Source: Utricularia gibba (Eukaryota > Streptophyta > Magnoliopsida > Lamiales > Lentibulariaceae). Taken from it: a stretch of DNA of 34,727 bases. A model generated the notes under the pieces. The model was not told the origin of the DNA. It worked only from the letters and a program-made list of their open reading frames with translations, and did no database searches. Positions 5,522 through 34,727 of this stretch are shown in pieces. Position 1 is the first letter of the stretch, and every line of letters begins with the position of its first letter. The stretch is from NCBI GenBank assembly GCA_002189035.1, contig NEEC01000492.1:1-34727 (forward strand), in the 5' to 3' direction. The translations under genes and the position numbers were made by a program.

Positions 5522-5814
5522 AAAGGAGTCAGACCGAACCTTGGTCAGAACGAAGTTCACAACGACATCACCCGCCCAAAAACGACAAGCTTTTCCTTGA
5601 GAAACATGTAGGCAGCCAATTACAACGTTAAGAAATGCATCAAGTTTTTTGCCGAGCTACAAATGACTATGGCCCGAGCTCGACTCGACCTCCTTCTCGA
5701 TACCGTTGCCCCACGAGAGCGCCTCAAATATAAAGCATGCGGTTGAGAAAACCGGTGGACATCCTAACTTCAATAAGTGCATCACGATTTTCGTCGAGTA
5801 GGACCCGATGTGGC
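5522..5814. repeat. Monomer M19 with an internal deletion in subunit B
   Basis: At about 5,749-5,762 the sequence reads GAAAACCGGTGGACATCC. The expected ATTTTG and CTCAT segments on either side of GGTG are both missing, which removes the GCTC/GCTT diagnostic site. It is a single-copy variant; two nearby deletions explain it. Confidence 0.8.
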
Positions 5815-11681: not shown

Positions 11682-11964
11682 AAAGGAAACCTTGGGTCAG
11701 AACGAAGTTCACAACGACATCACCCGCCCAAACGACAAGCTTTTCCTTGAGAAACCATGTAGGCAGCCATTAAAACCCAACGTTAAGAAATGCATCAAGT
11801 TTTTTGCCGAACAAATGACTATGGCCCGAGCTCGACTCGACCTCCATACCGTTGCCCCGAGAGCGCCCAAATATAAAGCATGCGGTTGAGAAAACCATTT
11901 GGGTGCTCATGACATCCTAACTTCAATAAGTGCATCACGATTTTCGTCGAGTAGGACCGATGGC

Positions 11965-12233
11965 AAAGGAGTTTGGGTCAGAACGAAGTTCACAACGACA
12001 TTTTTCCTTGAGAAACCATGTAGGCAGCCAATTAAAACCCAACGTTAAGAATGCATCAGTTTTTTGCGAGCTGACTATGGGCCCGAGCTCGACTCGACCT
12101 CCTCTCGATACCGTTGCCCCACGAGAGCGCTCCTCAGATATAAAGCATGCGGTTGAGAAAACCATTTTGGGTGCTCATGACATCCTAACTTCAATAAGTG
12201 CACACGATTTCGTCGAGTAGGACCCGATGTGGC
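11965..12233. repeat. Shortest monomer M40 (about 269 bp), HindIII site lost
   Basis: This unit carries several deletions. CACAACGACATTTTTCCTTGAG-like sequence at about 11,992 shows that roughly 20 bp including AAGCTT has been removed. GAGTTTGGG at the start shows a partial loss of the 10-bp block. GCGAGCTGACTATGG shows loss around GAGCTACAAATGAC. It is the only unit in which I found no HindIII site. It sits directly beside the domain I/II border. Confidence 0.85.
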
Positions 12234-14056
12234 AAAGGAGTCAGACGAACCTTGGGTCAGAACGAAGTTCACAACGACATCACCGCCCAAAAACGACAAG
12301 CTTTTCCTTGAGAAACCATGTAGGCAGCCAATTAAAACCCAACGTTAAGAAATGCATCAAGTTTTTGCCGAGCTACAAATGACTATGGCCGAGCTCGACT
12401 CGACCTCCTTTCGATACCGTTGCCCCACGAGAGCGCTCCTCAATAAAAGCATGCGGTTGAGAAAACCATTTGGGTGCTTATGAATCCTAACTTCAATAAG
12501 TGCATCACGATTTTCGTCGAGTAGGACCCGATGTGGCAAAGGAGTCAGACCGAACCTTGGGTCAGAACGAAGTTCACAACGACATCACCCGCCCAAAAAC
12601 GACAAGCTTTTCCTTGAGAAACCATGTAGGCAGCCAATTAAAACCCAACGTTAAGAAATGCATCAAGTTTTTTGCCGAGCACAAATGACTATGGGCCCGA
12701 GCTCGACTCGACCTCCTCGATACCGTTGCCCACGAGAGCGCCTCCTCAGATATAAAGCATGCGGTTGAGAAAACCATTTTGGGTGCTCATGACATCCTAA
12801 CTTCAATAAGTGCATCACGATTTCGTCGAGTAGGACCCGATGTGGCAAAGGAGTCAGACCGAACCTTGGGTCAGAACGAAGTTCACAACGACATCACCCG
12901 CCAAAAACGACAAGCTTTTCCTTGAGAAACCATGTAGGCAGCCAATTAAAACCCAACGTTAAGAATGCATCAAGTTTTTTGCCGAGCCACAATGACTATG
13001 GCCCGAGCTCGACTCGACCTCCTTCTCGATACCGTTGCCCCACGAGAGCGCTCCTCAGATATAAAGCATGCGGTTGAGAAAACCATTTTGGGTGCTCATG
13101 ACATCCTAACTTCAATAAGTGCAGCACGATTTCGTCGAGTAGACCCGATGTGGAAACCTTGGGTCAGAACGAAGTTCAACGACATCACCCGCCAAAACGA
13201 CAAGCTTTTCCTTGAGAACCATGTAGGCAGCCAATTAAAACCCAACGTTAAGAAATGCATCAAGTTTTTTGCCGACAAATGACTATGGGCCCGAGCTCGA
13301 CTCGACCCTGCTCGATACCGTTGCCCCACGAGAGCGCCTATCAAATATAAAGCATGCGGTTGAGAAAACCATTTTGGGTGCTCATGACATCCTAACTTCA
13401 ATAAGTGCATCACGATTTTCGTCGAGTAGGACCCGATGTGGCAAAGGAGTCAGACCGAACCTTGGTCAGAACGAAGTTCACAACGACATCACCCGCCCAA
13501 AAACGACAAGCTTTTCCTTGAGAAACCATGTAGGCAGCCAATTAAAACCAACGTTAAGAAATGCATCAAGTTTTTTGCCGAGCCAAATGACTATGGGCCC
13601 GAGCTCGACTCGACCTCCTTCTCGATACCGTTGCCCCACGAGAGCGCCTCCTCAATATAAAGCATGCGGTTGAGAAAACCATTTTGGGTGCTCATGACAT
13701 CCTAACTTCAATAAGTGCATCACGATTTTCGTCGAGTAGGACCGATGTGGCAAAAGGAACCTTGGGTCAGAACGAAGTTCACAACGACATCACCCGCCAA
13801 AAAACGACAAGCTTTTCCTTGAGAAACCATGTAGGCAGCCAATTAAAACCCAACGTTAAGAAATGCATCAAGTTTTTTGCCGAGCCACAAATGACTATGG
13901 GCCCGAGCTCGACTCGACCTCCTCTCGATACCGTTGCCCCACGAGAGCGCCTCCTCAGATATAAAGCATGCGGTTGAGAAAACATTTTGGGTGCTCATGA
14001 CATCCTAACTTCAATAAGTGCATCACGATTTTTCGTCGAGTAGGACCCGATGTGGC

Positions 14057-14351
14057 AAAGGAGTCAGACCGAACCTTGGGTCAGAACGAAGTTCACAACG
14101 ACATCACCCGCCAAAAACGACAAGCTTTTCCTTGAGAAACCATGTAGGCAGCCAATTAAAACCAACGTTAAGAAATGCATCAAGTTTTTGCCGAGCTACA
14201 AATGACTATGGGCCCGAGCTCGACTCGACCTTCTCGATACCGTTGCCCCACGAGAGCGCCTGCATGCGGTTGAGAAAACCATTTTGGGTGCTCATGACAT
14301 CCTAACTTCAATAAGTGCACACGATTTTCGTCGAGTAGGACCCGATGTGGC
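14057..14351. repeat. Monomer M47 with the same 13-bp deletion as M16
   Basis: GAGCGCCTGCATGCGG at about 14,254-14,269 has the same breakpoints as in M16, 9.4 kb to the left. It lacks CCTCAGATATAAA. I see no obvious direct repeat flanking the deletion that would favour independent recurrence. Confidence 0.85.
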
Positions 14352-17100
14352 AAAGGAGTCAGACCGAACCTTGGGTCAGAACGAAGTTCACAACGACATC
14401 ACCCGCCAAAAACGACAAGCTTTTCCTTGAGAAACCATGTAGGCAGCCAATTAAAACCAACGTTAAGAAATGCATCAAGTTTTTTGCCGAGCTACAAATG
14501 ACTATGGGCCCGAGCTCGACTCGACCTCTTCTCGATACGTTGCCCACGAGAGCGCTCCTCAGATATAAAGCATGCGGTTGAGAAAACCATTTTGGGTGCT
14601 CATGACATCCTAACTTCAATAAGTGCAGCACGATTTTCGTCGAGTAGGACCCGATGTGGCAAAGGAACCTTGGGTCAGAACGAAGTTCACAACGACATCA
14701 CCCGCCAAAAACGACAAGCTTTTCCTTGAGAAACCATGTAGGCAGCCATTAAAACCCAACGTTAAGAAATGCATCAAGTTTTTGCCGAGCCACAAATGAC
14801 TATGGGCCCGAGCTCGACTCGACCTCCTCTCGATACGTTGCCCACGAGAGCGCCTCCTCAGATATAAAGCATGCGGTTGAGAAACCATTTTGGGTGCTCA
14901 TGACATCCTAACTTCAATAAGTGCATCACGATTTTCGTCGAGTAGGACCCGATGTGGCAAAAGGAACCTTGGGTCAGAACGAAGTTCACAACGACATCAC
15001 CCGCCCAAAAACGACAAGCTTTTCCTTGAGAAACCATGTAGGCAGCCAATTAAAACCCAACGTTAAGAAATGCATCAAGTTTTTTGCCGAGCCACAAATG
15101 ACTATGGGCCCGAGCTCGACTCGACCTCCTTCTCGATACCGTTGCCCACGAGAGCGCCTCCTCAGATATAAAGCATGCGGTTGAGAAAACCATTTTGGGT
15201 GCTCATGACATCCTAACTTCAATAAGTGCAGCACGATTTTCGTCGAGTAGGACCCGATGTGGCAAAGGAGTCAGACCGAACTTGGGTCAGAACGAAGTTC
15301 ACAACGACATCACCGCCCAAAAACGACAAGCTTTTCCTTGAGAAACCATGTAGGCAGCCAATTAAAACCCAACGTTAAGAAATGCATCAAGTTTTTGCCG
15401 AGCTACAAATGACTATGGGCCCGAGCTCGACTCGACTCCTTCTCGATACGTTGCCCACGAGAGCGCCTCTCAATATAAAGCATGCGGTTGAGAAAACCAT
15501 TTTGGGTGCTCATGACATCCTAACTTCAATAAGTGCATCACGATTTTCGTCGAGTAGGACCCGATGTGGCAAAGGAACCTTGGGTCAGAACGAAGTTCAC
15601 AACGACATCACCGCCAAAAAAACGACAAGCTTTTCCTTGAGAAACCATGTAGGCAGCCAATTAAAACCCAACGTTAAGAAATGCATCAAGTTTTTTGCCG
15701 AGCTACAAATGACTATGGGCCCGAGCTCGACTCGACCTCCTTCTCGATACCGTTGCCCCACGAGAGCGCCTCCTCAGATATAAAGCATGCGGTTGAGAAA
15801 ACCATTTTGGGTGCTTATGACATCCTAACTTCAATAAGTGCATCACGATTTTCGTCGAGTAGGACCCGATGTGGCAAAGGAGTCAGACCGAACCTTGGGT
15901 CAGAACGAAGTTCACAACGACATCACCGCCCAAAACGACAAGCTTTTCCTTGAGAAACCATGTAGGCAGCCAATTAAAACCAACGTTAAGAAATGCATCA
16001 AGTTTTTTGCCGAGCTACAAATGACTATGGGCCGAGCTCGACTCGACCTCCTTCTCGATACCGTTGCCCCACGAGAGCGCCCTCAGATATAAAGCATGCG
16101 GTTGAGAAAACCATTTTGGGTGCTCATGACCTAACTTCAATAAGTGCATCACGATTTTCGTCGAGTAGGACCCGATGTGGCAAAGGAGTCAGACCGAACC
16201 TTGGGTCAGAACGAAGTTCACAACGACATCACCCGCCCAAAAACGACAAGCTTTTCCTTGAGAAACCATGTAGGCAGCCAATTAAAACCCAACGTTAAGA
16301 AATGCATCAAGTTTTTTGCCGAGCACAAATGACTATGGGCCGAGCTCGACTCGACCTCGATACCGTTGCCCACGAGAGCGCCTTATCAAATATAAAGCAT
16401 GCGGTTGAGAAAACATTTTTGGGTGCTCATGACATCCTAACTTCAATAAGTGCATCACGATTTTCGTCGAGTAGGACCGATGTGGCAAAGGAGTCAGACC
16501 GAACCTTGGGTCAGAACGAAGTTCACAACGACATCACCCGCCCAAAAACGACAAGCTTTTCCTTGAGAAACCATGTAGGCAGCCAATTAAAACCAACGTT
16601 AAGAAATGCATCAAGTTTTTTGCCGAGCCACAAATGACTATGGGCCCGAGCTCGACTCGACCCCTGCTCGATACCGTTGCCCCACGAGAGCGCCTTCAAA
16701 TATAAAGCATGCGGTTGAGAAAACCATTTGGGTGCTCATGACATCCTAACTTCAATAAGTGCAGCACGATTTTCGTCGAGTAGGACCCGATGTGGCAAAG
16801 GAGTCAGACTTGGGTCAGAACGAAGTTCACAACGACATCACCCGCCAAAAAACGACAAGCTTTTCCTTGAGAAACCATGTAGGCAGCCAATTAAAACCCA
16901 ACGTTAAGAAATGCATCAAGTTTTTTGCCGAGCACAAATGACTATGGCCCGAGCTCGACTCGACCTCCTCTCGATACCGTTGCCACGAGAGCGCCTCCTC
17001 AGATATAAAGCATGCGGTTGAGAAAACCATTTTGGGTGCTCATGACATCCTAACTTCAATAAGTGCATCACGATTTTCGTCGAGTAGGACCCGATGTGGC

Positions 17101-17372
17101 AAAGGAACCAGAACGAAGTTCACAACGACATCACCCGCCCAAAACGACAAGCTTTTCCTTGAGAAACCATGTAGGCAGCCAATTAAAACCAACGTTAAGA
17201 AATGCATCAAGTTTTTTGCCGAGCACAAATGACTATGGCCCGAGCTCGACTCGACGATACCGTTGCCCCACGAGAGCGCCTCCTCAGATATAAAGCATGC
17301 GGTTGAGAAAACCATTTTGCTTGACATCCTAACTTCAATAAGTGCATCACGATTTTCGTCGACCGATGTGGC
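17101..17372. repeat. Truncated monomer M57 (about 272 bp) at the domain II/III border
   Basis: The start reads AAAGGAACCAGAACG, so it is short-type with a further loss of TTGGGTC. GACTCGACGATACCG shows loss of CCTCCTTCT, and CCATTTTGCTTGACATCC shows loss within GGGTGCTCAT. The next unit (17373) also starts after a truncated GTCGACCGATG junction. Together they form the second deletion cluster of the window. Confidence 0.85.
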
Positions 17373-17669
17373 AAAGGAGTCAGACGAACAGAACGAAGTT
17401 CACAACGACATGCCCAAAAACGACAAGCTTTTCCTTGAGAAACCATGTAGGCAGCCATTAAAACCAACGTTAAGAAATGCATCAAGTTTTTTGCGAGCTA
17501 CAAATGACTATGGGCCCGAGCTCGACTCGACCTCCTTCTCGATACCGTTGCCCCACGAGAGCGCTCCTCAGATATAAAGCATGCGGTTGAGAAAACCATT
17601 TTGGGTGCTCATGACATCCTAACTTCAATAAGTGCAGCACGATTTTCGTCGAGTAGGACCCGATGTGGC

Positions 17670-20600
17670 AAAGGAGTCAGACCGAACCTTGGGTCAGAAC
17701 GAAGTTCACAACGACATCACCCGCCCAAAAAACGACAAGCTTTTCCTTGAGAAACCATGTAGGCAGCCAATTAAAACCCAACGTTAAGAAATGCATCAAT
17801 TTTTTGCCGAGCCACAAATGACTATGGCCCGAGCTCGACTCGACCTCCTTCTCGATACCGTTGCCCCACGAGAGCGCCTCCTCAGATATAAAGCATGCGG
17901 TTGAGAAAACCATTTTGGGTGCTCATGACATCCTAACTTCAATAAGTGCAGCACGATTTTCGTCGAGTAGGACCCGATGTGGCAAAGGAACCTTGGGTCA
18001 GAACGAAGTTCACAACGACATCACCCGCCAAAAAACGACAAGCTTTTCCTTGAGAAACCATGTAGGCAGCCAATTAAAACCCAACGTTAAGAAATGCATC
18101 AAGTTTTTTGCGAGCTACAAATGACTATGGGCCCGAGCTCGACTCGACCTCCTTCTCGATACCGTTGCCCACGAGAGCGCCTCCTCAGATATAAAGCATG
18201 CGGTTGAGAAAACCATTTTGGGTGCTCATGACATCCTAACTTCAATAAGTGCAGCACGATTTTCGTCGAGTAGGACCCGATGTGGCAAAGGAGTCAGACC
18301 GAACTTGGGTCAGAACGAAGTTCACAACGACATCACCCGCCAAAACGACAAGCTTTTCCTTGAGAAACCATGTAGGCAGCCAATTAAAACCCAACGTTAA
18401 GAAATGCATCAAGTTTTTTGCCGAGCTACAAATGACTATGGGCCCGAGCTCGACTCGACTCCTTCTCGATACCGTTGCCCCACGAGAGCGCCTCCTCAGA
18501 TATAAAGCATGCGGTTGAGAAAACCATTTTGGGTGCTCATGACATCCTAACTTCAATAAGCAGCACGATTTTCGTCGAGTAGGACCCGATGTGGCAAAGG
18601 AGTCAGACCGAACCTTGGGTCAGAACGAAGTTCACAACGACATCACCCGCCCAAAACGACAAGCTTTTCCTTGAGAAACCATGTAGGCAGCCAATTAAAA
18701 CCCAACGTTAAGAAATGCATCAAGTTTTTTGCCGAGCCACAAATGACTATGGGCCCGAGCTCGACTCGACCTCCTCTCGATACCGTTGCCCCACGAGAGC
18801 GCCTTCAGATATAAAGCATGCGGTTGAGAAACCATTTTGGGTGCTCATGACATCTAACTTCAATAAGTGCAGCACGATTTTCGTCGAGTAGGACCCGATG
18901 TGGCAAAGGAACCTTGGGTCAGAACGAAGTTCACAACGACATCAGCCCAAAAACGACAAGCTTTTCCTTGAGAAACCATGTAGGCAGCCAATTAAAACCC
19001 AACGTTAAGAAATGCATCAAGTTTTTTTGCCGAGCCACAAATGACTATGGGCCCGAGCTCGACTCGACCTCCTTCTCGATACCGTTGCCCACGAGAGCGC
19101 CTCCTCAGATATAAAGCATGCGGTTGAGAAAACCATTTTGGGTGCTCATGACATCCTAACTTCAATAAGTGCACGATTTCGTCGAGTAGGACCCGATGTG
19201 GCAAAGGAGTCAGGAACCTTGGGTCAGAACGAAGTTCACAACGACATCACCGCCCAAAAACGACAAGCTTTTCCTTGAGAAACCATGTAGGCAGCCAATT
19301 AAAACCCAACGTTAAGAAATGCATCAAGTTTTTTGCCGAGCTACAAATGACTATGGGCCCGAGCTCGACTCGACCTCCTTCTCGATACCGTTGCCCCACG
19401 AGAGCGCCTCCTCAGATATAAAGCATGCGGTTGAGAAAACCATTTTGGGTGCTCATGACATCCTAACTTCAATAAGTGCAGCACGATTTTCGTCGAGTAG
19501 GACCCGATGTGGCAAAGGAACCTTGGGTCAGAACGAAGTTCACAACGACATCACCCGCCCAAAAACGACAAGCTTTTCCTTGAGAAACCATGTAGGCAGC
19601 CAATTAAAACCCAACGTTAAGAAATGCATCAAGTTTTTTTGCCGAGCTACAAATGACTATGGGCCCGAGCTCGACTCGACCTCCTTCTCGATACCGTTGC
19701 CCACGAGAGCGCCTCCTCAGATATAAAGCATGCGGTTGAGAAACCATTTTGGGTGCTTATGACATCCTAACTTCAATAAGTGCATCACGATTTTTCGTCG
19801 AGTAGGACCCGATGTGGCAAAGGAGTCAGACCGAACCTTGGGTCAGAACGAAGTTCACAACGACATCACCAGCCCAAAAACGACAAGCTTTTCCTTGAGA
19901 AACCATGTAGGCAGCCAATTAAAACCCAACGTTAAGAAATGCATCAAGTTTTTTGCCGAGCCACAAATGACTATGGGCCCGAGCTCGACTCGACCTCCTT
20001 CTCGATACCGTTGCCCCACGAGAGCGCCTCCTCAGATATAAAGCATGCGGTTGAGAAAACCATTTTGGGTGCTCATGACATCCTAACTTCAATAAGTGCA
20101 GCACGATTTTCGTCGAGTAGGACCCGATGTGGCAAAGGAACCTTGGGTCAGAACGAAGTTCACAACGACACCCGCCCAAAAACGACAAGCTTTTCCTTGA
20201 GAAACCATGTAGGCAGCCAATTAAAACCCAACGTTAAGAAATGCATCAAGTTTTTTGCCGAGCCACAAATGACTATGGGCCCGAGCTCGACTCGACCTCC
20301 TTCTCGATACCGTTGCCCCACGAGAGCGCCTCCTCAGATATAAAGCATGCGGTTGAGAAAACCATTTTGGGTGCTCATGACATCCTAACTTCAATAAGTG
20401 CATCACGATTTCGTCGAGTAGGACCCGATGTGGCAAAGGAGTCAGACCGAACCTTGGGTCAGAACGAAGTTCACAACGACATCACCGCCCAAAAACGACA
20501 AGCTTTTCCTTGAGAAACCATGTAGGCAGCCAATTAAAACCCAACGTTAAGAAATGCATCAAGTTTTTTGCCGAGCCACAAATGACTATGGGCCCGAGCT

Positions 20601-23600
20601 CGACTCGACCTCGATACCGTTGCCCACGAGAGCGCCTCCTCAGATATAAAGCATGCGGTTGAGAAAACCATTTTGGGTGCTCATGACATCCTAACTTCAA
20701 TAAGTGCAGCACGATTTCGTCGAGTAGGACCCGATGTGGCAAAGGAGTCACCGAACCTTGGGTCAGAACGAAGTTCACAACGACATCACCCGCCCAAAAA
20801 CGACAAGCTTTTCCTTGAGAAACCATGTAGGCAGCCAATTAAAACCCAACGTTAAGAAATGCATCAAGTTTTTTGCCGAGCTACAAATGACTATGGGCCC
20901 GAGCTCGACTCGACCTCCTTCTCGATACCGTTGCCCCACGAGAGCGCCTCCTCAGATATAAAGCATGCGGTTGAGAAAACCATTTTGGGTGCTCATGACA
21001 TCCTAACTTCAATAAGTGCATCACGATTTTCGTCGAGTAGGACCCGATGTGGCAAAGGAACCTTGGGTCAGAACGAAGTTCACAACGACATCACCAGCCC
21101 AAAAACGACAAGCTTTTCCTTGAGAAACCATGTAGGCAGCCAATTAAAACCAACGTTAAGAAATGCATCAAGTTTTTTGCCGAGCTACAAATGACTATGG
21201 GCCCGAGCTCGACTCGACCTCCTTCTCGATACCGTTGCCCACGAGAGAGCCTCCTCAGATATAAAAGCATGCGGTTGAGAAAACCATTTTGGGTGCTCAT
21301 GACATCCTAACTTCAATAAGTGCATCACGATTTTCGTCGAGTAGGACCCGATGTGGCAAAGGAGTCAGACCGAACCTTGGGTCAGAACGAAGTTCACAAC
21401 GACATCACCCGCCCAAAAACGACAAGCTTTTCCTTGAGAAACCATGTAGGCAGCCAATTAAAACCCAACGTTAAGAAATGCATCAAGTTTTTTGCCGAGC
21501 TACAAATGACTATGGGCCCGAGCTCGACTCGACCTCCTTCTCGATACCGTTGCCCACGAGAGCGCCTCCTCAGATATAAAGCATGCGGTTGAGAAAACCA
21601 TTTTGGGTGCTTATGACATCCTAACTTCAATAAGTGCATCACGATTTTCGTCGAGTAGGACCCGATGTGGCAAAGGAGTCAGACCGAACCTTGGGTCAGA
21701 ACGAAGTTCACAACGACATCACCCCCCAAAAACGACAAGCTTTTCCTTGAGAAACCATGTAGGCAGCCAATTAAAACCCAACGTTAAGAAATGCATCAAG
21801 TTTTTTGCCGAGCCACAAATGACTATGGGCCCGAGCTCGACTCGACCTCCTTCTCGATACCGTTGCCCCACGAGAGCGCCTCCTCAGATAAAAGCATGCG
21901 GTTGAGAAAACCATTTTGGGTGCTCATGACATCCTAACTTCAATAAGTGCACACGATTTTCGTCGAGTAGGACCGATGTGGCAAAAGAACCTTGGGTCAG
22001 AACGAAGTTCACAACGACATCACCCGCCCAAAAACGACAAGCTTTTCCTTGAGAAACCATGTAGGCAGCCAATTAAAACCCAACGTTAAGAAATGCATCA
22101 AGTTTTTTGCCGAGCTACAAATGACTATGGGCCCGAGCTCGACTCGACCTCCTTCTCGATACCGTTGCCCACGAGAGCGCCTCCTCAGATATAAAGCATG
22201 CGGTTGAGAAAACCATTTTGGGTGCTCATGACATCCTAACTTCAATAAGTGCATCACGATTTTCGTCGAGTAGGACCCGATGTGGCAAAGGAGTCAGACC
22301 GAACCTTGGGTCAGAACGAAGTTCACAACGACATCACCCGCCCAAAAACGACAAGCTTTTCCTTGAGAAACCATGTAGGCAGCCAATTAAAACCCAACGT
22401 TAAGAAATGCATCAAGTTTTTTGCCGAGCCACAAATGACTATGGGCCCGAGCTCGACTCGACCCCTTCTCGATACCGTTGCCCACGAGAGCGCCTCCTCA
22501 GATATAAAGCATGCGGTTGAGAAAACCATTTTGGGTGCTCATGACATCCTAACTTCAATAAGTGCAGCACGATTTCGTCGAGTAGGACCCGATGTGGCAA
22601 AGGAGTCAGACCGAACTTGGGTCAGAACGAAGTTCACAACGACATCACCGCCCAAAAAACGACAAGCTTTTCCTTGAGAAACCATGTAGGCAGCCAATTA
22701 AAAACCCAACGTTAAGAAATGCATCAAGTTTTTTGCCGAGCTACAAATGACTATGGGCCCGAGCTCGACTCGACCTCCTTCTCGATACCGTTGCCCCACG
22801 AGAGCGCCTCCTCAGATATAAAGCATGCGGTTGAGAAAACCATTTTGGGTGCTCATGACATCCTAACTTCAATAAGTGCAGCACGATTTTCGTCGAGTAG
22901 GACCCGATGTGGCAAAGGAACCTTGGGTCAGAACGAAGTTCACAACGACATCACCCGCCCAAAAACGACAAGCTTTTCCTTGAGAAACCATGTAGGCAGC
23001 CAATTAAAACCCAACGTTAAGAAATGCATCAAGTTTTTTGCCGAGCTACAAATGACTATGGGCCCGAGCTCGACTCGACCTCCTTCTCGATACCGTTGCC
23101 ACGAGAGCGCGCCTCAGATATAAAGCATGCGGTTGAGAAAACCATTTTGGGTGCTCATGACATCCTAACTTCAATAAGTGCAGCACGATTTTCGTCGAGT
23201 AGGACCCGATGTGGCAAAGGAGTCAGACTTTGGGTCAGAACGAAGTTCACAACGACATCACCCGCCCAAAACGACAAGCTTTTCCTTGAGAAACCATGTA
23301 GGCAGCCAATTAAAACCCAACGTTAAGAAATGCATCAAGTTTTTTGCCGAGCTACAAATGACTATGGGCCCGAGCTCGACTCGACTCCTTCTCGATACCG
23401 TTGCCCCACGAGAGCGCCTCCTCAGATATAAAGCATGCGGTTGAGAAAACCATTTTGGGTGCTCATGACATCCTAACTTCAATAAGTGCATCACGATTTT
23501 CGTCGAGTAGGACCGATGTGGCAAAGGAGTCAGACCTTGGGTCAGAACGAAGTTCACAACGACATCACGCCCCAAAAACGACAAGCTTTTCCTTGAGAAA

Positions 23601-24445
23601 CCATGTAGGCAGCCAATTAAAACCCAACGTTAAGAAATGCATCAAGTTTTTTGCCGAGCCACAAATGACTATGGGCCCGAGCTCGACTCGACTCCTTCTC
23701 GATACCGTTGCCCCACGAGAGCGCCTCCTCAGATATAAAGCATGCGGTTGAGAAAACCATTTTGGGTGCTCATGACATCCTAACTTCAATAAGTGCAGCA
23801 CGATTTTCGTCGAGTAGGACCCGATGTGGCAAGGAACCTTGGGTCAGAACGAAGTTCACAACGACATCACCCGCCCAAAAACGACAAGCTTTTCCTTGAG
23901 AAACCATGTAGGCAGCCAATTAAAACCCAACGTTAAGAAATGCATCAAGTTTTTTGCCGAGCTACAAATGACTATGGGCCCGAGCTCGACTCGACCTCCT
24001 TCTCGATACCGTTGCCCCACGAGAGCGCCTCCTCAGATATAAGCATGCGGTTGAGAAAACCATTTTGGGTGCTCATGACATCCTAACTTCAATAAGTGCA
24101 GCACGATTTCGTCGAGTAGGACCCGATGTGGCAAAGGAGTCAAACCGAACCTTGGGTCAGAACGAAGTTCACAACGACATCACCCGCCCAAAAACGACAA
24201 GCTTTTCCTTGAGAAACCATGTAGGCAGCCAATTAAAACCCAACGTTAAGAAATGCATCAAGTTTTTTGCCGAGCCACAAATGACTATGGGCCCGAGCTC
24301 GACTCGACCTCCTTCTCGATACCGTTGCCCCACGAGAGCGCCTCCTCAGATATAAAGCATGCGGTTGAGAAACCATTTTGGGTGCTCATGACATCCTAAC
24401 TTCAATAAGTGCAGCACGATTTTCGTCGAGTAGGACCGATGTGGC
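17670..24445. repeat. Domain III, first part: monomers M59-M80
   Basis: Unit starts: 17670, 17984, 18287, 18596, 18905, 19203, 19514, 19819, 20134, 20435, 20741, 21054, 21358, 21672, 21983, 22287, 22599, 22914, 23216, 23523, 23831, 24133. Short-type starts: 17984, 18905, 19514, 20134, 21054, 21983, 22914, 23831. GTGCAGCAC is found in 13 of 22 units. No CAAATATA, TGCTCG or GTGGAAA variant remains. A minor variant, CACCAGCCC for CACCCGCCC, is shared by units 19819 and 21054 here and by unit 29934 further right. Confidence 0.93.
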
Positions 24446-25011
24446 AAAGGAACCTTGGGTCAGAACGAAGTTCACAACGACATCACCCCCCAAAAACGAC
24501 AAGCTTTTCCTTGAGAAACCATGTAGGCAGCCAATTAAAACCCAACGTTAAGAAATGCATCAAGTTTTTTGCCGAGCCACAAATGACTATGGGCCGAGCT
24601 CGACTCGACCTCCTTCCCCCTTCCTCCCATATATGCCCTTGACTTTCTCATGACATCCTAACTTCAATAAGTGCAGCACGATTTTCGTCGAGTAGGACCC
24701 GATGTGGCAAAGGAGTCAGACCGAACCTTGGGTCAGAACGAAGTTCACAACGACATCACCGCCCAAAAAACGACAAGCTTTTCCTTGAGAAACCATGTAG
24801 GGCAAATTAAAACCAACGTTAGAAAATGCATCAAGTTTTTTGCCGAGCCACAATGACTATGGGCCCCGACTCGCTCGATTTCTCGATACCGTTGCCCACG
24901 AGAGCGCCTCCTCAGATATAAAGCATGCGGTTGAGAAACCATTTTGGGTGCTCATGACATCCTAACTTCAATAAGTGCAGCACGATTTTCGTCGAGTAGG
25001 ACCGATGTGGC
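24446..25011. repeat. Disrupted monomer pair M81-M82
   Basis: These two neighbouring units (starts 24446 and 24709) are the most abnormal in domain III. In M81, after GACCTCCTTC, about 80 bp of expected sequence are replaced by roughly 40 bp of C/T-rich sequence (24,617-24,650) containing CCATATATG. The standard sequence resumes at CTCATGACATCC. In M82 the AGGCAGCCAATT segment reads AGGGCAAATT, and the ApaI/SacI region is rearranged to GGGCCCCGACTCGCTCGA at about 24,861-24,878, losing SacI. Flanking units are near consensus. A gap-fill or assembly scar, or a local repair event, would both fit. Confidence 0.85.
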
Positions 25012-26541
25012 AAAGGAAGGAACCTTGGGTCAGAACGAAGTTCACAACGACATCACCCGCCCAAAAACGACAAGCTTTTCCTTGAGAAACCATGTAGGCA
25101 GCCAATTAAAACCCAACGTTAAGAAATGCATCAAGTTTTTGCCGAGCTACAAATGACTATGGGCCGAGCTCGACTCGACCTCCTTCTCGATACGTTGCCC
25201 ACGAGAGCGCCTCCTCAGATATAAAGCATGCGGTTGAGAAAACCATTTTGGGTGCTCATGACATCCTAACTTCAATAAGTGCAGCACGATTTTCGTCGAG
25301 TAGGACCCGATGTGGCAAAGGAACCTTGGGTCAGAACGAAGTTCACAACGACATCACCGCCCAAAACGACAAGCTTTTCCTTGAGAAACCATGTAGGCAG
25401 CCAATTAAAACCCAACGTTAAGAAATGCATCAAGTTTTTTGCCGAGCCACAAATGACTATGGGCCCGAGCTCGACTCGACCTCCTTCTCGATACCGTTGC
25501 CCCACGAGAGCGCCTCCTCAGATATAAAGCATGCGGTTGAGAAAACCATTTTGGGTGCTCATGACATCCTAACTTCAATAAGTGCAGCACACGATTTTCG
25601 TCGAGTAGGACCCGATGTGGCAAAGGAACCTTGGGTCAGAACGAAGTTCACAACGACATCACCGCCCAAAAACGACAAGCTTTTCCTTGAGAAACCATGT
25701 AGGCAGCCAATTAAAACCCAACGTTAAGAAATGCATCAAGTTTTTTGCCGAGCCAAAAAATGACTATGGGCCCGAGCTCGACTCGACCTCCTTCTCGATA
25801 CCGTTGCCCGAGAGCGCCTCCTCAGATATAAAGCATGCGGTTGAGAAAACCATTTTGGGTGCTCATGACATCCTAACTTCAATAAGTGCAGCACGATTTT
25901 CGTCGAGTAGGACCCGATGTGGCAAAGGAAACCTTGGGTCAGAACGAAGTTCACAACGACATCACCCCCAAAAACGACAAGCTTTTCCTTGAGAAACCAT
26001 GTAGGCAGCCAATTAAAACCCAACGTTAAGAAATGCATCAAGTTTTTTGCCGAGCCACAAATGACTATGGGCCCGAGCTCGACTCGACCTCCTTCTCGAT
26101 ACCGTTGCCCCACGAGAGCGCCTCCTCAGATATAAAGCATGCGGTTGAGAAAACCATTTTGGGTGCTCATGACATCCTAACTTCAATAAGTGCAGCACGA
26201 TTTTCGTCGAGTAGGACCCGATGTGGCAAAGGAGTCAGACCGAACCTTGGGTCAGAACGAAGTTCACAACGACATCACCCGCCAAAAACGACAAGCTTTT
26301 CCTTGAGAAACCATGTAGGCAGCCAATTAAAACCCAACGTTAAGAAATGCATCAAGTTTTTTGCCGAGCACAAATGACTATGGGCCCGAGCTCGACTCGA
26401 CCTCCTTCTCGATACCGTTGCCCCACGAGAGCGCCTCCTCAGATATAAAGCATGCGGTTGAGAAAACCATTTTGGGTGCTCATGACATCCTAACTTCAAT
26501 AAGTGCAGCACGATTTTTCGTCGAGTAGGACCCGATGTGGC

Positions 26542-26846
26542 AAAGGAACCTTGGGTCAGAACGAAGTTCACAACGACATCACCCGCCAAAAAACGACAAG
26601 CTTTTCCTTGAGAAACCATGTAGGCAGCCAATTAAAACCCAACGTTAAGAAATGCATCAAGTTTTTTGCCGAGCTACAAATGACTATGGGCCCGAGCTCG
26701 ACTCGACCTCCTTCTCGATACCGTTGCCCCACGAGAGCGCCTCCTCAGATATAAAGCATGCGGTTGAGAAAACCATTTTGGGTGCTCATGACATCCTAAC
26801 TTCAATAAGTGCATCACGATTTTCGTCGAGTAGGACCCGATGTGGC
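26542..26846. repeat. Reference short monomer (M88, 305 bp)
   Basis: This unit has the short junction AAAGGAACCTTGGG in place of AAAGGAGTCAGACCGAACC. That is a 10-bp deletion (GTCAGACCGA) next to a GA/GA microhomology. The rest matches the long unit. About 34 units have this form. All of them lie right of 11,680 and none lie among the first 38 units. Its recurrence with the same breakpoints marks it as an inherited subfamily, not a sequencing error. Confidence 0.92.
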
Positions 26847-29800
26847 AAAGGAGTCAGACCGAACCTTGGGTCAGAACGAAGTTCACAACGACATCACCGC
26901 CCAAAACGACAAGCTTTTCCTTGAGAAACCATGTAGGCAGCCAATTAAAACCCAACGTTAAGAAATGCATCAAGTTTTTTGCCGAGCCACAAATGACTAT
27001 GGGCCCGAGCTCGACTCGACCTCCTTCTCGATACCGTTGCCCACGAGAGCGCCTCCTCAGATATAAAGCATGCGGTTGAGAAAACCATTTTGGGTGCTCA
27101 TGACATCCTAACTTCAATAAGTGCAGCACGATTTTCGTCGAGTAGGACCCGATGTGGCAAAGGAACCTTGGGTCAGAACGAAGTTCACAACGACATCACC
27201 CGCCAAAAACGACAAGCTTTTCCTTGAGAAACCATGTAGGCAGCCAATTAAAACCCAACGTTAAGAAATGCATCAAGTTTTTTGCCGAGCTACAAATGAC
27301 TATGGGCCCGAGCTCGACTCGACCTCCTTCTCGATACCGTTGCCCCACGAGAGCGCCTCCTCAGATATAAAGCATGCGGTTGAGAAAACCATTTTGGGTG
27401 CTTATGACATCCTAACTTCAATAAGTGCATCACGATTTTCGTCGAGTAGGACCCGATGTGGCAAAGGAGTCAGACGAACCTTGGGTCAGAACGAAGTTCA
27501 CAACGACATCACCCGCCCAAAAACGACAAGCTTTTCCTTGAGAAACCATGTAGGCAGCCAATTAAAACCCAACGTTAAGAAATGCATCAAGTTTTTTGCC
27601 GAGCCACAAATGACTATGGGCCCGAGCTCGACTCGACCTCCTTCTCGATACCGTTGCCCACGAGAGCGCCTCCTCAGATATAAAGCATGCGGTTGAGAAA
27701 ATTTTGGGTGCTCATGACATCCTAACTTCAATAAGTGCATCACGATTTTCGTCGAGTAGGACCCGATGTGGCAAAGGAACCTTGGGTCAGAACGAAGTTC
27801 ACAACGACATCACCCGCCCAAAAACGACAAGCTTTTCCTTGAGAAACCATGTAGGCAGCCAATTAAAACCCAACGTTAAGAAATGCATCAAGTTTTTTGC
27901 CGAGCTACAAATGACTATGGGCCCGAGCTCGACTCGACCTCCTTCTCGATACCGTTGCCCCACGAGAGCGCCTCCTCAGATATAAAGCATGCGGTTGAGA
28001 AAACCATTTGGGTGCTTATGACATCCTAACTTCAATAAGTGCATCACGATTTTCGTCGAGTAGGACCCGATGTGGCAAAGGAGTCACCGAACCTTGGGTC
28101 AGAACGAAGTTCACAACGACATCACCCGCCCAAAAACGACAAGCTTTTCCTTGAGAAACCATGTAGGCAGCCAATTAAAACCCAACGTTAAGAAATGCAT
28201 CAAGTTTTTTGCCGAGCTACAAATGACTATGGGCCCGAGCTCGACTCGACCTCCTTCTCGATACCGTTGCCCCGAGAGCGCCTCCTCAGATATAAAGCAT
28301 GCGGTTGAGAAAACCATTTTGGGTGCTCATGACATCCTAACTTCAATAAGTGCATCACGATTTTCGTCGAGTAGGACCCGATGTGGCAAAGGAGTCAGAC
28401 CGAACCTTGGGTCAGAACGAAGTTCACAACGACATCACCCCCAAAAACGACAAGCTTTTCCTTGAGAAACCATGTAGGCAGCCAATTAAAACCCAACGTT
28501 AAGAAATGCATCAAGTTTTTTGCCGAGCCACAAATGACTATGGGCCCGAGCTCGACTCGACCTCCTTCTCGATACCGTTGCCCCACGAGAGCGCCTCCTC
28601 AGATATAAAGCATGCGGTTGAGAAAACCATTTTGGGTGCTCATGACATCCTAACTTCAATAAGTGCAGCACGATTTTCGTCGAGTAGGACCCGATGTGGC
28701 AAAGGAACCTTGGGTCAGAACGAAGTTCACAACGACATCACCCGCCCAAAAACGACAAGCTTTTCCTTGAGAAACCATGTAGGCAGCCAATTAAAACCCA
28801 ACGTTAAGAAATGCATCAAGTTTTTTGCCGAGCCACAAATGACTATGGGCCCGAGCTCGACTCGACCTCCTTCTCGATACCGTTGCCCACGAGAGCGCCC
28901 TCAGATATAAAGCATGCGGTTGAGAAAACCATTTTGGGTGCTCATGACATCCTAACTTCAATAAGTGCAGCACGATTTTCGTCGAGTAGGACCCGATGTG
29001 GCAAAGGAGTCAGACCGAACCTTGGGTCAGAACGAAGTTCACAACGACATCACCCGCCCAAAAACGACAAGCTTTTCCTTGAGAAACCATGTAGGCAGCC
29101 AATTAAAACCCAACGTTAAGAAATGCATCAAGTTTTTTGCCGAGCCACAAATGACTATGGGCCCGAGCTCGACTCGACCTCCTTCTCGATACCGTTGCCC
29201 CACGAGAGCGCCTCCTCAGATATAAAGCATGCGGTTGAGAAAACCATTTTGGGTGCTCATGACATCCTAACTTCAATAAGTGCAGCACGATTTTCGTCGA
29301 GTAGGACCCGATGTGGCAAAGGACCCTTGGGTCAGAACGAAGTTCACAACACACACCCCGCCCAAAAACGACAAGCTTTTCCTTGAGAAACCATGTAGGC
29401 AGCCAATTAAAACCCAACGTTAAGAAATGCATCAAGTTTTTTGCCGAGCACAAATGACTATGGGCCCGAGCTCGACTCGACCTCCTTCTCGATACCGTTG
29501 CCCCACGAGAGCGCCTCCTCAGATATAAAGCATGCGGTTGAGAAAACCATTTTGGGTGCTCATGACATCCTAACTTCAATAAGTGCAGCACGATTTTCGT
29601 CGAGTAGGACCCGATGTGGCAAAGGAGTCAGACCGAACCTTGGGTCAGAACGAAGTTCACAACGACATCACCCGCCAAAAACGACAAGCTTTTCCTTGAG
29701 AAACCATGTAGGCAGCCAATTAAAACCCAACGTTAAGAAATGCATCAAGTTTTTTGCCGAGCCACAAATGACTATGGGCCCGAGCTCGACTCGACCTCCT

Positions 29801-32800
29801 TCTCGATACCGTTGCCCCACGAGAGCGCCTCCTCAGATATAAAGCATGCGGTTGAGAAAACATTTTGGGTGCTCATGACATCCTAACTTCAATAAGTGCA
29901 GCACGATTTTCGTCGAGTAGGACCCGATGTGGCAAAGGAGTCACCTTGGGTCAGAACGAAGTTCACAACGACATCACCAGCCCAAAAACGACAAGCTTTT
30001 CCTTGAGAAACCATGTAGGCAGCCAATTAAAACCCAACGTTAAGAAATGCATCAAGTTTTTTGCCGAGCCACAAATGACTATGGGCCCGAGCTCGACTCG
30101 ACCTCCTTCTCGATACCGTTGCCCACGAGAGCGCCTCCTCAGATATAAAGCATGCGGTTGAGAAAACCATTTTGGGTGCTCATGACATCCTAACTTCAAT
30201 AAGTGCAGCACGATTTTCGTCGAGTAGGACCCGATGTGGCAAAGGAACCTTGGGTCAGAACGAAGTTCACAACGACATCACCCGCCAAAAAAAACGACAA
30301 GCTTTTCCTTGAGAAACCATGTAGGCAGCCAATTAAAACCCAACGTTAAGAAATGCATCAAGTTTTTTGCCGAGCCACAAATGACTATGGGCCCGAGCTC
30401 GACTCGACCTCCTTCTCGATACCGTTGCCCCCCACGAGAGCGCCTCCTCAGATATAAAGCATGCGGTTGAGAAAACCATTTTGGGTGCTCATGACATCCT
30501 AACTTCAATAAGTGCAGCACGATTTTCGTCGAGTAGGACCCGATGTGGCAAAGGAACCTTGGGTCAGAACGAAGTTCACAACGACATCACCCGCCCAAAA
30601 ACGACAAGCTTTTCCTTGAGAAACCATGTAGGCAGCCAATTAAAACCCAACGTTAAGAAATGCATCAAGTTTTTTGCCGAGCCACAAATGACTATGGGCC
30701 CGAGCTCGACTCGACCTCCTTCTCGATACCGTTGCCCCCACGAGAGCGCCTCCTCAGATATAAAGCATGCGGTTGAGAAAACCATTTTGGGTGCTCATGA
30801 CATCCTAACTTCAATAAGTGCAGCACGATTTCGTCGAGTAGGACCCGATGTGGCAAAGGAACCTTGGGTCAGAACGAAGTTCACAACGACATCACCCGCC
30901 AAAAACGACAAGCTTTTCCTTGAGAAACCATGTAGGCAGCCAATTAAAACCCAACGTTAAGAAATGCATCAAGTTTTTGCCGAGAACAAATGACTATGGG
31001 CCCGAGCTCGACTCGACTCCTTCTCGATACCGTTGCCCACGAGAGCGCCTCCTCAGATATAAAGCATGCGGTTGAGAAAACCATTTTGGGTGCTCATGAC
31101 ATCCTAACTTCAATAAGTGCAGCACGATTTTCGTCGAGTAGGACCCGATGTGGCAAAGGAGTCAGACCGAACCTTGGGTCAGAACGAAGTTCACAACGAC
31201 ATCACCCCCAAAAACGACAAGCTTTTCCTTGAGAAACCATGTAGGCAGCCAATTAAAACCCAACGTTAAGAAATGCATCAAGTTTTTTGCCGAGCTACAA
31301 AATGACTATGGGCCCGAGCTCGACTCGACCTCCTTCTCGATACCGTTGCCCACGAGAGCGCCTCCTCAGATATAAAGCATGCGGTTGAGAAAACCATTTT
31401 GGGTGCTCATGACATCCTAACTTCAATAAGTGCAGCACGATTTTCGTCGAGTAGGACCCGATGTGGCAAAGGAACCTTGGGTCAGAACGAAGTTCACAAC
31501 GACATCACCCGCCCAAAAACGACAAGCTTTTCCTTGAGAAACCATGTAGGCAGCCATTAAAACCCAACGTTAAGAAATGCATCAAGTTTTTTGCCGAGCC
31601 ACAAATGACTATGGGCCCGAGCTCGACTCGACCTCCTTCTCGATACCGTTGCCCCACGAGAGCGCCTCCTCAGATATAAAGCATGCGGTTGAGAAAACCA
31701 TTTTGGGTGCTCATGACATCCTAACTTCAATAAGTGCAGCACGATTTTCGTCGAGTAGGACCCGATGTGGCAAAGGAACCTTGGGTCAGAACGAAGTTCA
31801 CAACGACATCACCCGCCCAAAACGACAAGCTTTTCCTTGAGAAACCATGTAGGCAGCCAATTAAAACCCAACGTTAAGAAATGCATCAAGTTTTTTGCCG
31901 AGCTACAAATGACTATGGGCCCGAGCTCGACTCCTTCTCGATACCGTTGCCCCACGAGAGCGCCTCCTCAGATATAAAGCATGCGGTTGAGAAAACCATT
32001 TTGGGTGCTTATGACATCCTAACTTCAATAAGTGCAGCACGATTTTCGTCGAGTAGGACCCGATGTGGCAAAGGAGTCAAACCTTGGGTCAGAACGAAGT
32101 TCACAACGACATCACCCGCCCAAAAACGACAAGCTTTTCCTTGAGAAACCATGTAGGCAGCCAATTAAAACCCAACGTTAAGAAATGCATCAAGTTTTTT
32201 GCCGAGCTACAAATGACTATGGGCCCGAGCTCGACTCGACCTCCTTCTCGATACCGTTGCCCCACGAGAGCGCCTCCTCAGATATAAAGCATGCGGTTGA
32301 GAAAACCATTTTGGGTGCTCATGACATCCTAACTTCAATAAGTGCATCACGATTTTCGTCGAGTAGGACCCGATGTGGCAAAGGAGTCAGACCCTTGGGT
32401 CAGAACGAAGTTCACAACGACATCACCCGCCCAAAAAACGACAAGCTTTTCCTTGAGAAACCATGTAGGCAGCCAATTAAAACCCAACGTTAAGAAATGC
32501 ATCAAGTTTTTTGCCGAGCCACAAATGACTATGGGCCCGAGCTCGACTCGACCTCCTTCTCGATACCGTTGCCCCACGAGAGCGCCTCCTCAGATATAAA
32601 GCATGCGGTTGAGAAAACCATTTTGGGTGCTCATGACATCCTAACTTCAATAAGTGCAGCACGATTTTCGTCGAGTAGGACCCGATGTGGCAAAAGGAAC
32701 CTTGGGTCAGAAAAGTTCACAACGACATCACCCGCCCAAAAACGACAAGCTTTTCCTTGAGAAACCATGTAGGCAGCCAATTAAAACCCAACGTTAAGAA

Positions 32801-33300
32801 ATGCATCAAGTTTTTTGCCGAGCTACAAATGACTATGGGCCCGAGCTCGACTCGACCTCCTTCTCGATACCGTTGCCCCACGAGAGCGCCTCCTCAGATA
32901 TAAAGCATGCGGTTGAGAAAACCATTTTGGGTGCTGACATCCTAACTTCAATAAGTGCAGCACGATTTTCGTCGAGTAGGACCCGATGTGGCAAAGGAAC
33001 CTTGGGTCAGAACGAAAGTTCACAACGACATCACCCGCCAAAAAACGACAAGCTTTTCCTTGAGAAACCATGTAGGCAGCCAATTAAAACCCAACGTTAA
33101 GAAATGCATCAAGTTTTTTTGCCGAGCTACAAATGACTATGGGCCCGAGCTCGACTCGACCTCCTTCTCGATACCGTTGCCCCACGAGAGCGCCTCCTCA
33201 GATATAAAGCATGCGGTTGAGAAAACCATTTTGGGTGCTCATGACATCCTAACTTCAATAAGTGCAGCACGATTTTCGTCGAGTAGGACCCGATGTGGGC

Positions 33301-33615
33301 AAAGGAGTCAGACCGAACCTTGGGTCAGAACGAAGTTCACAACGACATCACCCGCCCAAAAACGACAAGCTTTTCCTTGAGAAACCATGTAGGCAGCCAA
33401 TTAAAACCCAACGTTAAGAAATGCATCAAGTTTTTTGCCGAGCCACAAATGACTATGGGCCCGAGCTCGACTCGACCTCCTTCTCGATACCGTTGCCCCA
33501 CGAGAGCGCCTCCTCAGATATAAAGCATGCGGTTGAGAAAACCATTTTGGGTGCTTATGACATCCTAACTTCAATAAGTGCATCACGATTTTCGTCGAGT
33601 AGGACCCGATGTGGC
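33301..33615. repeat. Reference long monomer (M110, 315 bp)
   Basis: This copy is essentially full-length consensus and serves as the reference long unit. Landmarks in order: AAAGGAGTCAGACCGAACC at the start, carrying the 10-bp block missing from short units; HindIII AAGCTT at 33367-33372; TTGAGAAACCAT at 33377; NsiI ATGCAT at 33421-33426; a T6 run; ApaI GGGCCC at 33457-33462 overlapping the 8-bp palindrome CGAGCTCG at 33462-33469; TATAAAG at 33519-33525; SphI GCATGC at 33525-33530; TTGAGAAAACCAT at 33533; and the diagnostic sites GCTTATGAC and GTGCATCAC. The consensus has about 19 CpG, close to chance expectation. Confidence 0.95.
33377..33532. repeat. Subunit A of the monomer (156 bp), exemplar
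   Basis: Subunit A runs from TTGAGAAACCAT to just before TTGAGAAAACCAT. After the opening TTGAGAAA, its next 58 bp (to 33442) align without gaps to subunit B at 40 of 58 positions, ending in the shared CGAG. Weaker similarity continues: GAGCTCGACTCGACCT in A against GAGTCAGACCGAACCT in B, and AAGC near both ends. A holds the NsiI, ApaI, SacI, TATAAAG and SphI landmarks and the GAGCTACAA/GAGCCACAA polymorphism. Confidence 0.8.
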
Positions 33616-33692
33616 AAAGGAGTCAGACCGAACCTTGGGTCAGAACGAAGTTCACAACGACATCACCCGCCCCAAAAACGACAAGCTTTTCC
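33533..33692. repeat. Subunit B of the monomer (159 bp consensus), exemplar
   Basis: Subunit B begins at TTGAGAAAACCAT, runs across the AAAGGA phasing point, and ends before the next TTGAGAAACCAT. This copy has one extra C (CGCCCCAAAAA) and so measures 160 bp. B carries most diagnostic variation: GCTTATGAC/GCTCATGAC, GTGCATCAC/GTGCAGCAC 27 bp downstream, and the 10-bp indel. In short units B shrinks to about 149 bp. The spacing between successive TTGAGAAA motifs is therefore 156 bp, then 159 or 149 bp. Confidence 0.8.
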
Positions 33693-34549
33693 TTGAGAAA
33701 CCATGTAGGCAGCCAATTAAAACCCAACGTTAAGAAATGCATCAAGTTTTTTGCCGAGCCACAAATGACTATGGGCCCCGAGCTCGACTCGACCTCCTTC
33801 TCGATACCGTTGCCCCACGAGAGCGCCTCCTCAGATATAAAGCATGCGGTTGAGAAAACCATTTTGGGTGCTCATGACATCCTAACTTCAATAAGTGCAG
33901 CACGATTTTCGTCGAGTAGGACCCGATGTGGCAAAGGAGTCAGACCGAACCTTGGGTCAGAACGAAGTTCACAACGACATCACCCGCCCAAAAACGACAA
34001 GCTTTTCCTTGAGAAACCATGTAGGCAGCCAATTAAAACCCAACGTTAAGAAATGCATCAAGTTTTTTGCCGAGCTACAAATGACTATGGGCCCGAGCTC
34101 GACTCGACCTCCTTCTCGATACCGTTGCCCCACGAGAGCGCCTCCTCAGATATAAAGCATGCGGTTGAGAAAACCATTTTGGGTGCTTATGACATCCTAA
34201 CTTCAATAAGTGCAGACGATTTTCGTCGAGTAGGACCCGATGTGGCAAAGGAACCTTGGGTCAGAACGAAGTTCACAACGACATCACCCGCCCAAAAACG
34301 ACAAGCTTTTCCTTGAGAAACCATGTAGGCAGCCAATTAAAACCCAACGTTAAGAAATGCATCAAGTTTTTGCCGAGCCACAAATGACTATGGGCCCGAG
34401 CTCGACTCGACCTCCTTCTCGATACCGTTGCCCACGAGAGCGCCTCCTCAGATATAAAGCATGCGGTTGAGAAAACCATTTTGGGTGCTCATGACATCCT
34501 AACTTCAATAAGTGCAGCACGATTTTCGTCGAGTAGGACCCGATGTGGC

Positions 34550-34727
34550 AAAGGAACCTTTGGGTCAGAACGAAGTTCACAACGACATCACCCGCCCAAA
34601 AAACAAGCTTTTCCTTGAGAAACCATGTAGGCAGCCAATTAAAACCCAACGTTAAGAAATGCATCAAGTTTTTTTGCCGAGCCACAAATGACTATGGGCC
34701 GAGCTCGACTCGACCTCCTTCTCGATA
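34550..34727. repeat. Partial monomer M114 at the right window edge
   Basis: This short-type start (AAAGGAACCTTTGGG, one extra T) continues normally through HindIII, NsiI and SacI and stops at CTTCTCGATA because the window ends. The first unit of the window begins exactly at the phasing motif, but nothing in the sequence makes that edge a natural array boundary. Confidence 0.95.

What the first reader, a model, noticed from the sequence alone, without database searches (positions are those of the whole stretch)
33377..33692. The 315-bp unit is an ancient dimer of two nucleosome-sized subunits
TTGAGAAA(A)CCAT occurs twice per unit, spaced 156 and 159 bp apart. After TTGAGAAA(A), the next 58 bp of the two halves align without a gap with 40/58 matches (33385-33442 against 33542-33599), ending in the shared CGAG. 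Weaker similarity continues: GAGCTCGACTCGACCT against GAGTCAGACCGAACCT, and AAGC near both ends. This implies an ancestral monomer of about 157 bp that doubled, diverged, and was then amplified as a dimer. The homogenised unit is now the pair, as in other satellites that evolved composite units.
Basis: seen in the sequence. Interest (0 to 1): 0.75.

Follow-up and report, generated by a model that had tools for sequence, protein, structure and literature searches.

The report
Bladderwort satellite built from ancient dimers
A long DNA repeat in what is probably the humped bladderwort genome is built from two distantly related halves of about 157 bases that joined long ago, and its relatives lie at the ends of several large assembled chromosome pieces, so it may be centromere DNA in a plant reported to lack such repeats.

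Summary
The window is one array of ~315-bp units (mean 98.8% alike); each unit is A (156 bp) + B (159 bp). The stated block matches 40/58; A aligns to B better than any of 2000+2000 shuffles, in the expected register. In 182.5 kb of array-bearing pieces, 1063 of 1066 neighbouring monomers alternate. The A-A junction pattern has no match genome-wide; all 59 hits of the B-B pattern are B-to-A junctions. In a tree of 20 monomers from five contigs the A|B split has support 100 (A-A 77%, B-B 78%, A-B 52% identity): the dimer predates every array family sampled. Beyond the finding, one branch forms a true higher-order repeat, a-b-c-(a-c)n (1,567 bp: dimers five apart 98% alike, neighbours 77%), another a 2,328-bp composite. 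The family lies at 7 of 46 ends of 23 large contigs, including one that starts with a telomere and enters the array 3.49 Mb later. The genome is probably Utricularia gibba, whose putative centromeres are described in print as lacking satellites. A centromere role is inferred, not shown; whether doubling or divergence came first cannot be told.

The parts
1..34727 (+). Tandem array of the ~315-bp A-B dimer; fills the whole window, both ends open
   Evidence: TRF: 80.6 copies 1-24616 and 32.8 copies 24647-34727
33376..33531 (+). Subunit A of the unit named in the finding (156 bp)
   Evidence: Start at CTTGAGAAACC, read from the letters; consensus A 156 bp
33532..33691 (+). Subunit B of the same unit (160 bp here; consensus 159)
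   Evidence: Start at GTTGAGAAAACC, read from the letters; consensus B 159 bp
33385..33442 (+). Best-matching block, copy in A
   Evidence: 40/58 identical to 33542-33599, no gap
33542..33599 (+). Best-matching block, copy in B
   Evidence: 40/58 identical to 33385-33442, no gap

Best explanation
This is a plant satellite whose basic unit is an old A-B dimer of two ~157-bp monomers. Shown: A and B are homologous over most of their length; the dimer predates every array family sampled; families are homogenised at the level of the dimer (window), of a higher-order repeat a-b-c-(a-c)n of dimers (C460 right end, C452), or of a 2,328-bp composite (C402). Inferred mechanism: A and B, about 54% alike, share too little to recombine with each other, so unequal exchange or break-induced replication runs in dimer register or multiples of it; this spreads variants among dimers and keeps A and B apart. 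Inferred role: the arrays belong to centromeric or pericentromeric regions of several Utricularia gibba chromosomes, where a unit could seat two nucleosomes. The confidence given is for the ancient-dimer origin with dimer-level homogenisation; the centromere role alone I put at about 0.5.
For: A/B alignment against shuffles and rotations and by profile. A|B split with support 100 among 20 monomers (already 100 for the B clade among 12). Strict alternation, 1063 of 1066 neighbours; no A-A junction match; all 59 hits of the B-B pattern are B-to-A. Within every consensus type A/B identity stays low (0.52-0.55; 0.46 and 0.54 in C510), so A and B do not homogenise each other. Higher-order repeat: lag-5 identity 0.981 against 0.775 for neighbours. 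Position: C213 telomere at base 1, array from 3,486,168 to the contig end.
Against: The part of A and B after base 66 alone is borderline (178 and 80 of 2000 shuffles). Rare out-of-register events exist: one A-A and two B-B pairs and one B-B in the C510 left piece. The erosion test (97 lost to 49 gained A-B matches) is weak: the reversed-B control gave 70 to 65, but rotated controls gave 1157 to 607, the same ratio; I hold those invalid because the aligner restored the register. Centromere role: no CENH3 or phasing data; 39 of 46 large-contig ends examined lack the family; no steady gain of homogeneity inward on C213.
Confidence: 0.88

Rival explanations
1. Capture instead of doubling: an older monomeric array already held diverged A and B monomers, and one neighbouring pair was amplified together (the usual model of higher-order repeat birth). 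The dimer is as old, but divergence came first.
For: Fits the higher-order repeats seen later in the same family, where diverged dimers a, b, c were amplified together. A and B are already far apart in the majority sequences, 92 of 156.
Against: No monomeric array was found to support an older monomeric stage, though strongly diverged ones could be missed.
Confidence: 0.5
2. Non-centromeric heterochromatin: a knob or pericentromeric block with the same dimer history but no kinetochore role.
For: Absent from 39 of 46 large-contig ends examined. Arrays abut Ty1/copia and Ty3/gypsy elements. C460 carries two different arrays about 774 kb apart, so at most one need be the centromere. A paper describes the putative U. 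gibba centromeres as satellite-free (PMC8333044, passages).
Against: Interior place on C213, 3.49 Mb from a telomere; members also at ends of C402, C414, C510; a floor of about 1.17 Mb; a 161-bp satellite is reported centromeric in the related genus Genlisea (PMC4542322, passages).
Confidence: 0.45
3. The A/B likeness is chance: a 315-bp monomer with a short shared motif and no dimer origin.
For: The second part alone barely beats shuffles.
Against: 0 of 4000 shuffles, register optimum at rotation 0, profile match over about 130 positions, other satellites of the same genome (337 and 344 bp) show no half-half signal.
Confidence: 0.02

Closest known systems
Primate alpha satellite: A/B (n/B) dimers and their higher-order repeats (PMC8997354, passages)
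   Same: Two monomer classes in alternation, 50-70% identity between monomers of one higher-order repeat, dimers as the base of longer chromosome-specific higher-order repeats with near-identical copies.
   Different: No sequence relation was tested or is claimed; no CENP-B box search was made; monomer 157 bp, not 171; the window type is a plain dimer array.
Doubled centromere repeats: New World monkey 343-bp repeat and Sorghum AB dimer (PMC4053949, passages)
   Same: A doubled, diverged monomer became the dominant unit; A and B copies cluster apart in a tree.
   Different: Different sequence and organism; the Sorghum A and B are described there as differing by SNPs, here A and B are only about 54% alike.
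Plant higher-order repeats in switchgrass (PMC4053949, passages)
   Same: Multi-monomer higher-order repeats in a plant satellite seen with PacBio reads.
   Different: There whole and truncated 166-175-bp monomers; here diverged dimers in the order a-b-c-(a-c)n.
Genlisea nigrocaulis 161-bp centromeric repeat Gn7c161 (PMC4542322, passages)
   Same: Same plant family, similar monomer length; reported to co-localise with a centromere-specific antibody.
   Different: Only its two published primers could be compared: not above chance, 596 and 201 of 1000 shuffled primers scored as well. Full sequence not available here.

Membership tests
Composite (dimeric) satellite DNA | Two homologous subunits per unit, more alike than shuffled sequence | tested here: met
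   0 of 4000 shuffles, best at rotation 0; profile E down to 5e-10
Composite (dimeric) satellite DNA | Whole units far more alike than the two subunits | tested here: met
   Units 0.988, A/B 0.538
Composite (dimeric) satellite DNA | A and B copies form separate clades | tested here: met
   A|B split support 100, 20 monomers from five contigs
Higher-order repeat satellite | Multi-unit blocks repeat with much higher identity than neighbouring units | tested here: met
   C460 right end: 0.981 at lag 5 against 0.775 at lag 1, 60 of 61 intervals kept. This holds for that family, not for the window array itself
Centromeric satellite | Bound by CENH3 | not testable with these tools
   No ChIP data available
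Centromeric satellite | Interior position on a chromosome, away from telomeres | tested here: met
   C213: telomere repeats at base 1, array from 3,486,168 to the contig end; shown for this one contig
Centromeric satellite | Present on every chromosome, or a defined subset | tested here: inconclusive
   7 of 46 ends of 23 large contigs carry the family; interiors of C1-C4 were not read
Genlisea Gn7c161 satellite | Sequence similarity to the 161-bp monomer | tested here: inconclusive
   Only primers compared, not above chance

The most novel reading that the evidence does not exclude
Utricularia gibba, a model for a minimal plant genome described as having satellite-free centromeres, does have a centromeric satellite on a subset of its chromosomes. 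It follows an alpha-satellite-like plan reached independently: obligate A/B dimers from which local higher-order repeats (a-b-c-(a-c)n and a 2.3-kb composite) are built, while other chromosomes use other repeats or none.
Probability: 0.4. Interest if true: 0.7.

Novelty: new member of a known kind. Interest (0 to 1): 0.52.

Why it matters
If the arrays are centromeric, a published statement about the centromeres of a well-known tiny plant genome needs correcting, and a 100-Mb genome would be at hand in which satellite and apparently satellite-free centromeres could be compared. The strict A/B alternation without homogenisation between A and B would give an independent test, in a plant, of why primate alpha satellite also builds its higher-order repeats from dimers.

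Tried and rejected
Order breaks looked like A-A-A runs; in the four places read they are B starts with a one-base homopolymer deletion. The 59 hits of the B-B pattern are all an A variant after B. A smooth gain of homogeneity inward from the C213 edge was expected but not found: pairwise identity over eight pieces is 0.908, 0.968, 0.939, 0.916, 0.926, 0.939, 0.964, 0.959, lowest at the edge but not monotone; the C460 array edge is at 0.981. Rotated controls for the erosion test (1157 to 607 over 20 rotations, the same ratio as the real 97 to 49) I set aside because the aligner restored the register; the reversed-B control gave 70 to 65; I give the erosion result little weight. tRNA and Rfam searches of the window: nothing. 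Rfam on 14 pieces (13 contig ends and the C460 array edge): nothing at gathering thresholds. Genlisea primers: chance level. The 337- and 344-bp repeats show no likeness to the 315-bp unit and no dimer signal. Finding the C503 flank elsewhere was not scored.

Rows dropped before counts: window intervals outside 290-330 bp (96 of 113 kept); C460 intervals outside 280-340 bp (60 of 61 kept); hits of 90 bp or less in the tiling, which also used 28 loci plus the window and not the later pieces; in the tree, C510 monomers of about 140 bp or less (left: 37 of 40 used; right: 9 of 12), C402 monomers of about 125 bp or less from one macrorepeat copy (4 used), type a2 and three of four C213 consensuses.

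Full report
What was checked. The window is contig C124 (34,727 bp) of a 100.09-Mb, 516-contig genome and consists wholly of one tandem array. From 96 units (of 113 intervals) I derived a 315-bp consensus; mean identity over 2000 sampled pairs is 0.988, range 0.948-1, gap columns left out. Units differ in length by one-base homopolymer indels and by a recurrent difference of about 10 bp; I take the homopolymer indels to be long-read errors (inference).

Is A homologous to B? Global alignment 98 of 149 columns, none of 2000 + 2000 shuffles as good, best of all rotations of B at rotation 0. The best stretch is the first 66 bp (48/66); the remainder alone is borderline (178 and 80 of 2000 shuffles reach it). 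A profile of A monomers alone finds B monomers over about 130 of 155 positions at E down to 5e-10 in the rows shown. As a control, the 337-bp and 344-bp repeats of the same genome give no half-half signal.

Is the dimer ancient? I collected other members. C213 carries a variant 95-97% like the window unit. The right end of C460 carries a diverged family with dimer types a, b, c that are 76-87% alike among themselves and 79-83% like the window and C213 types. C510 (left), C510 (right) and C402 carry further ones. In a maximum-likelihood tree of 20 monomers from five contigs (C124, C213, C402, C460, C510) the A|B split is present with ultrafast-bootstrap support 100 and a branch of 0.45; A-A averages 0.770, B-B 0.777, A-B 0.522 identity. 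So the sampled families descend from one A-B dimer, or from an array in which A and B already alternated. A test of whether lineage-specific changes erode A-B matches gave 97 lost to 49 gained against 70 to 65 with B reversed, but rotated controls, which I hold invalid, gave the same ratio as the real data; I do not lean on it.

Do other orders exist? A-A junctions: 0 in the genome at up to 3 mismatches. B-B pattern: 59 hits, all 59 listed, each a B-to-A junction with a variant A start. In the window and 28 loci (182,542 bp, some flank included) 1097 monomers were tiled; of 1066 adjacent pairs 532 are B-A, 531 A-B, 1 A-A and 2 B-B, and 2 more pairs were set aside for gaps over 100 bp. Later pieces: 40 monomers of C510 left with one B-B pair; 22 of C402 and 12 of C510 right, all in A-B order. 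Strongly diverged monomeric arrays elsewhere could have been missed.

A further level. The C460 right end (satellite from about 861,144 to the contig end 880,676) reads a-b-c-a-c over 60 dimers with one slip; units five apart average 0.981, neighbours 0.775. In two C452 pieces the order also includes a-b-c-a-c-a-c, and spacings near 935 bp of the b-type 33-mer on C99 and C435 suggest plain a-b-c (not read). That marker has 182 matches. Both 600-bp ends of C452, C456, C133, C435, C92 and C99 are wholly this satellite. On C402 three dimers plus about 1.5 kb of other sequence recur every 2,328 bp; two copies are 0.998 alike.

Amount and place. The 30-mer from B matches 3,782 times (1,643 + 2,139) at up to 2 mismatches. 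The same test finds 102 of about 113 units in the window and 62 of about 135 in seven C213 pieces, so about 1.17 Mb is a floor for these types. The listing shows only 100 places; in contig order it begins at C34, so C1-C33 appear to hold no exact copy of that 30-mer, withheld stretches aside. C213 (3.70 Mb) has telomere repeats at base 1 and satellite from 3,486,168, just behind a Ty1/copia element; every piece read from there to the contig end (eight) is satellite. C460 (881 kb) has window-type satellite at its left, read at bases 1-1000 and from 83,001 to about 86,960 with matches listed between, then a Ty3/gypsy element, and the higher-order array at its right. Five 3-kb samples between hold no satellite and three open frames of 120 aa or more; the two tested had no Pfam match. 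I read both ends (500-1,500 bp; 6 kb for C213 right) of 23 large contigs (0.38-8.5 Mb) that had come up in searches, not a complete set: 7 of 46 ends carry the family: C213 right, C402 right, C414 left (a 138-bp piece), C460 both, C510 both. C64 passes from the C213 type to the window type within one contig. Orientation at C213, C414 and C503 against C460 suggests more than one array, but inversions or large insertions could explain it (inference).

Which organism? Chlorophyll a/b-binding protein genes; TTTAGGG telomeres; a mitochondrial COX1 with LLLLCCSALVEV, two adjacent cysteines, and PMC3141634 (passages) reports two contiguous cysteines in COX of Utricularia and some Genlisea; that this is the site meant is from recall. 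Contig C451 is 6,822,880 bp and PMC8333044 (passages) names a Unitig_8 of 6.8 Mb. I conclude Utricularia gibba, probably the PacBio assembly. Against a perfect fit: a review gives 581 contigs (PMC5793159, passages), here 516; PMC8333044 counts 18 contigs over 1 Mb and four entire chromosomes, while I met 19 over 1 Mb and telomere repeats at both ends of two only, C3 and C4.

Literature. PMC8333044 (passages) states an absence of satellite repeats and a paucity of centromeric chromoviruses in putative U. gibba centromeres, citing an earlier genome paper; the 2017 genome paper I tried is not held. Searches with Utricularia, satellite, centromere, CENH3, higher-order and tandem-repeat terms listed no paper whose title or opening abstract describes this repeat; the lists were capped (15 of 314, 12 of 266), and most papers were not opened. 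Precedents for the principle: alpha satellite dimers (PMC8997354, passages); doubled centromere repeats in monkeys, AB dimers in Sorghum, higher-order repeats in switchgrass and in 76 of 171 species with Sanger data (PMC4053949, passages).

Mechanism, most likely. Shown: homology, alternation, no homogenisation between A and B, homogenisation at dimer or multi-dimer level. Inferred: exchange runs in dimer register because A and B share too little identity; repeated exchange gave local families and higher-order repeats; the interior place on C213 and the neighbouring retroelements suggest (peri)centromeric chromatin. Not shown: CENH3, nucleosome phasing, which chromosomes.

Noticed in passing
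C451 right end (L054, L065) and C244 right end (L048): Two contigs with telomere repeats at their left end finish in another tandem repeat, 337 bp on C451 and about 344 bp on C244; the two are related to each other (local score 520) but not to the 315-bp unit.
   Followed up: partly
C1, C2, C409, C505, C515: These contig lengths are round (8,500,000; 6,192,500; 2,492,500; 3,452,500; 267,500), as if cut at fixed steps; missing right telomeres on C1 and C2 may be due to this.
   Followed up: no
window 24602-24646: One unit has about 85 bp of consensus replaced by a shorter unrelated CT-rich stretch; it separates the two TRF rows.
   Followed up: no
window, e.g. 32692-32703 against 33303-33319: A recurrent ~10-bp length difference at AAAGGA(GTCAGACCG)AACC splits units into about 315-bp and 304-bp forms.
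   Followed up: no
C402:2622001-2629907 (L114): A 2,328-bp macrorepeat joins three A-B dimers to about 1.5 kb of non-satellite sequence of 37% G+C with no open frame over 139 aa.
   Followed up: partly
C414:1-400 (L064), C205:17209-17488: A 138-bp satellite piece is followed by a repeat found at many places on other large contigs (240 bp, 82-94% alike); C205 shares part of the same junction.
   Followed up: partly
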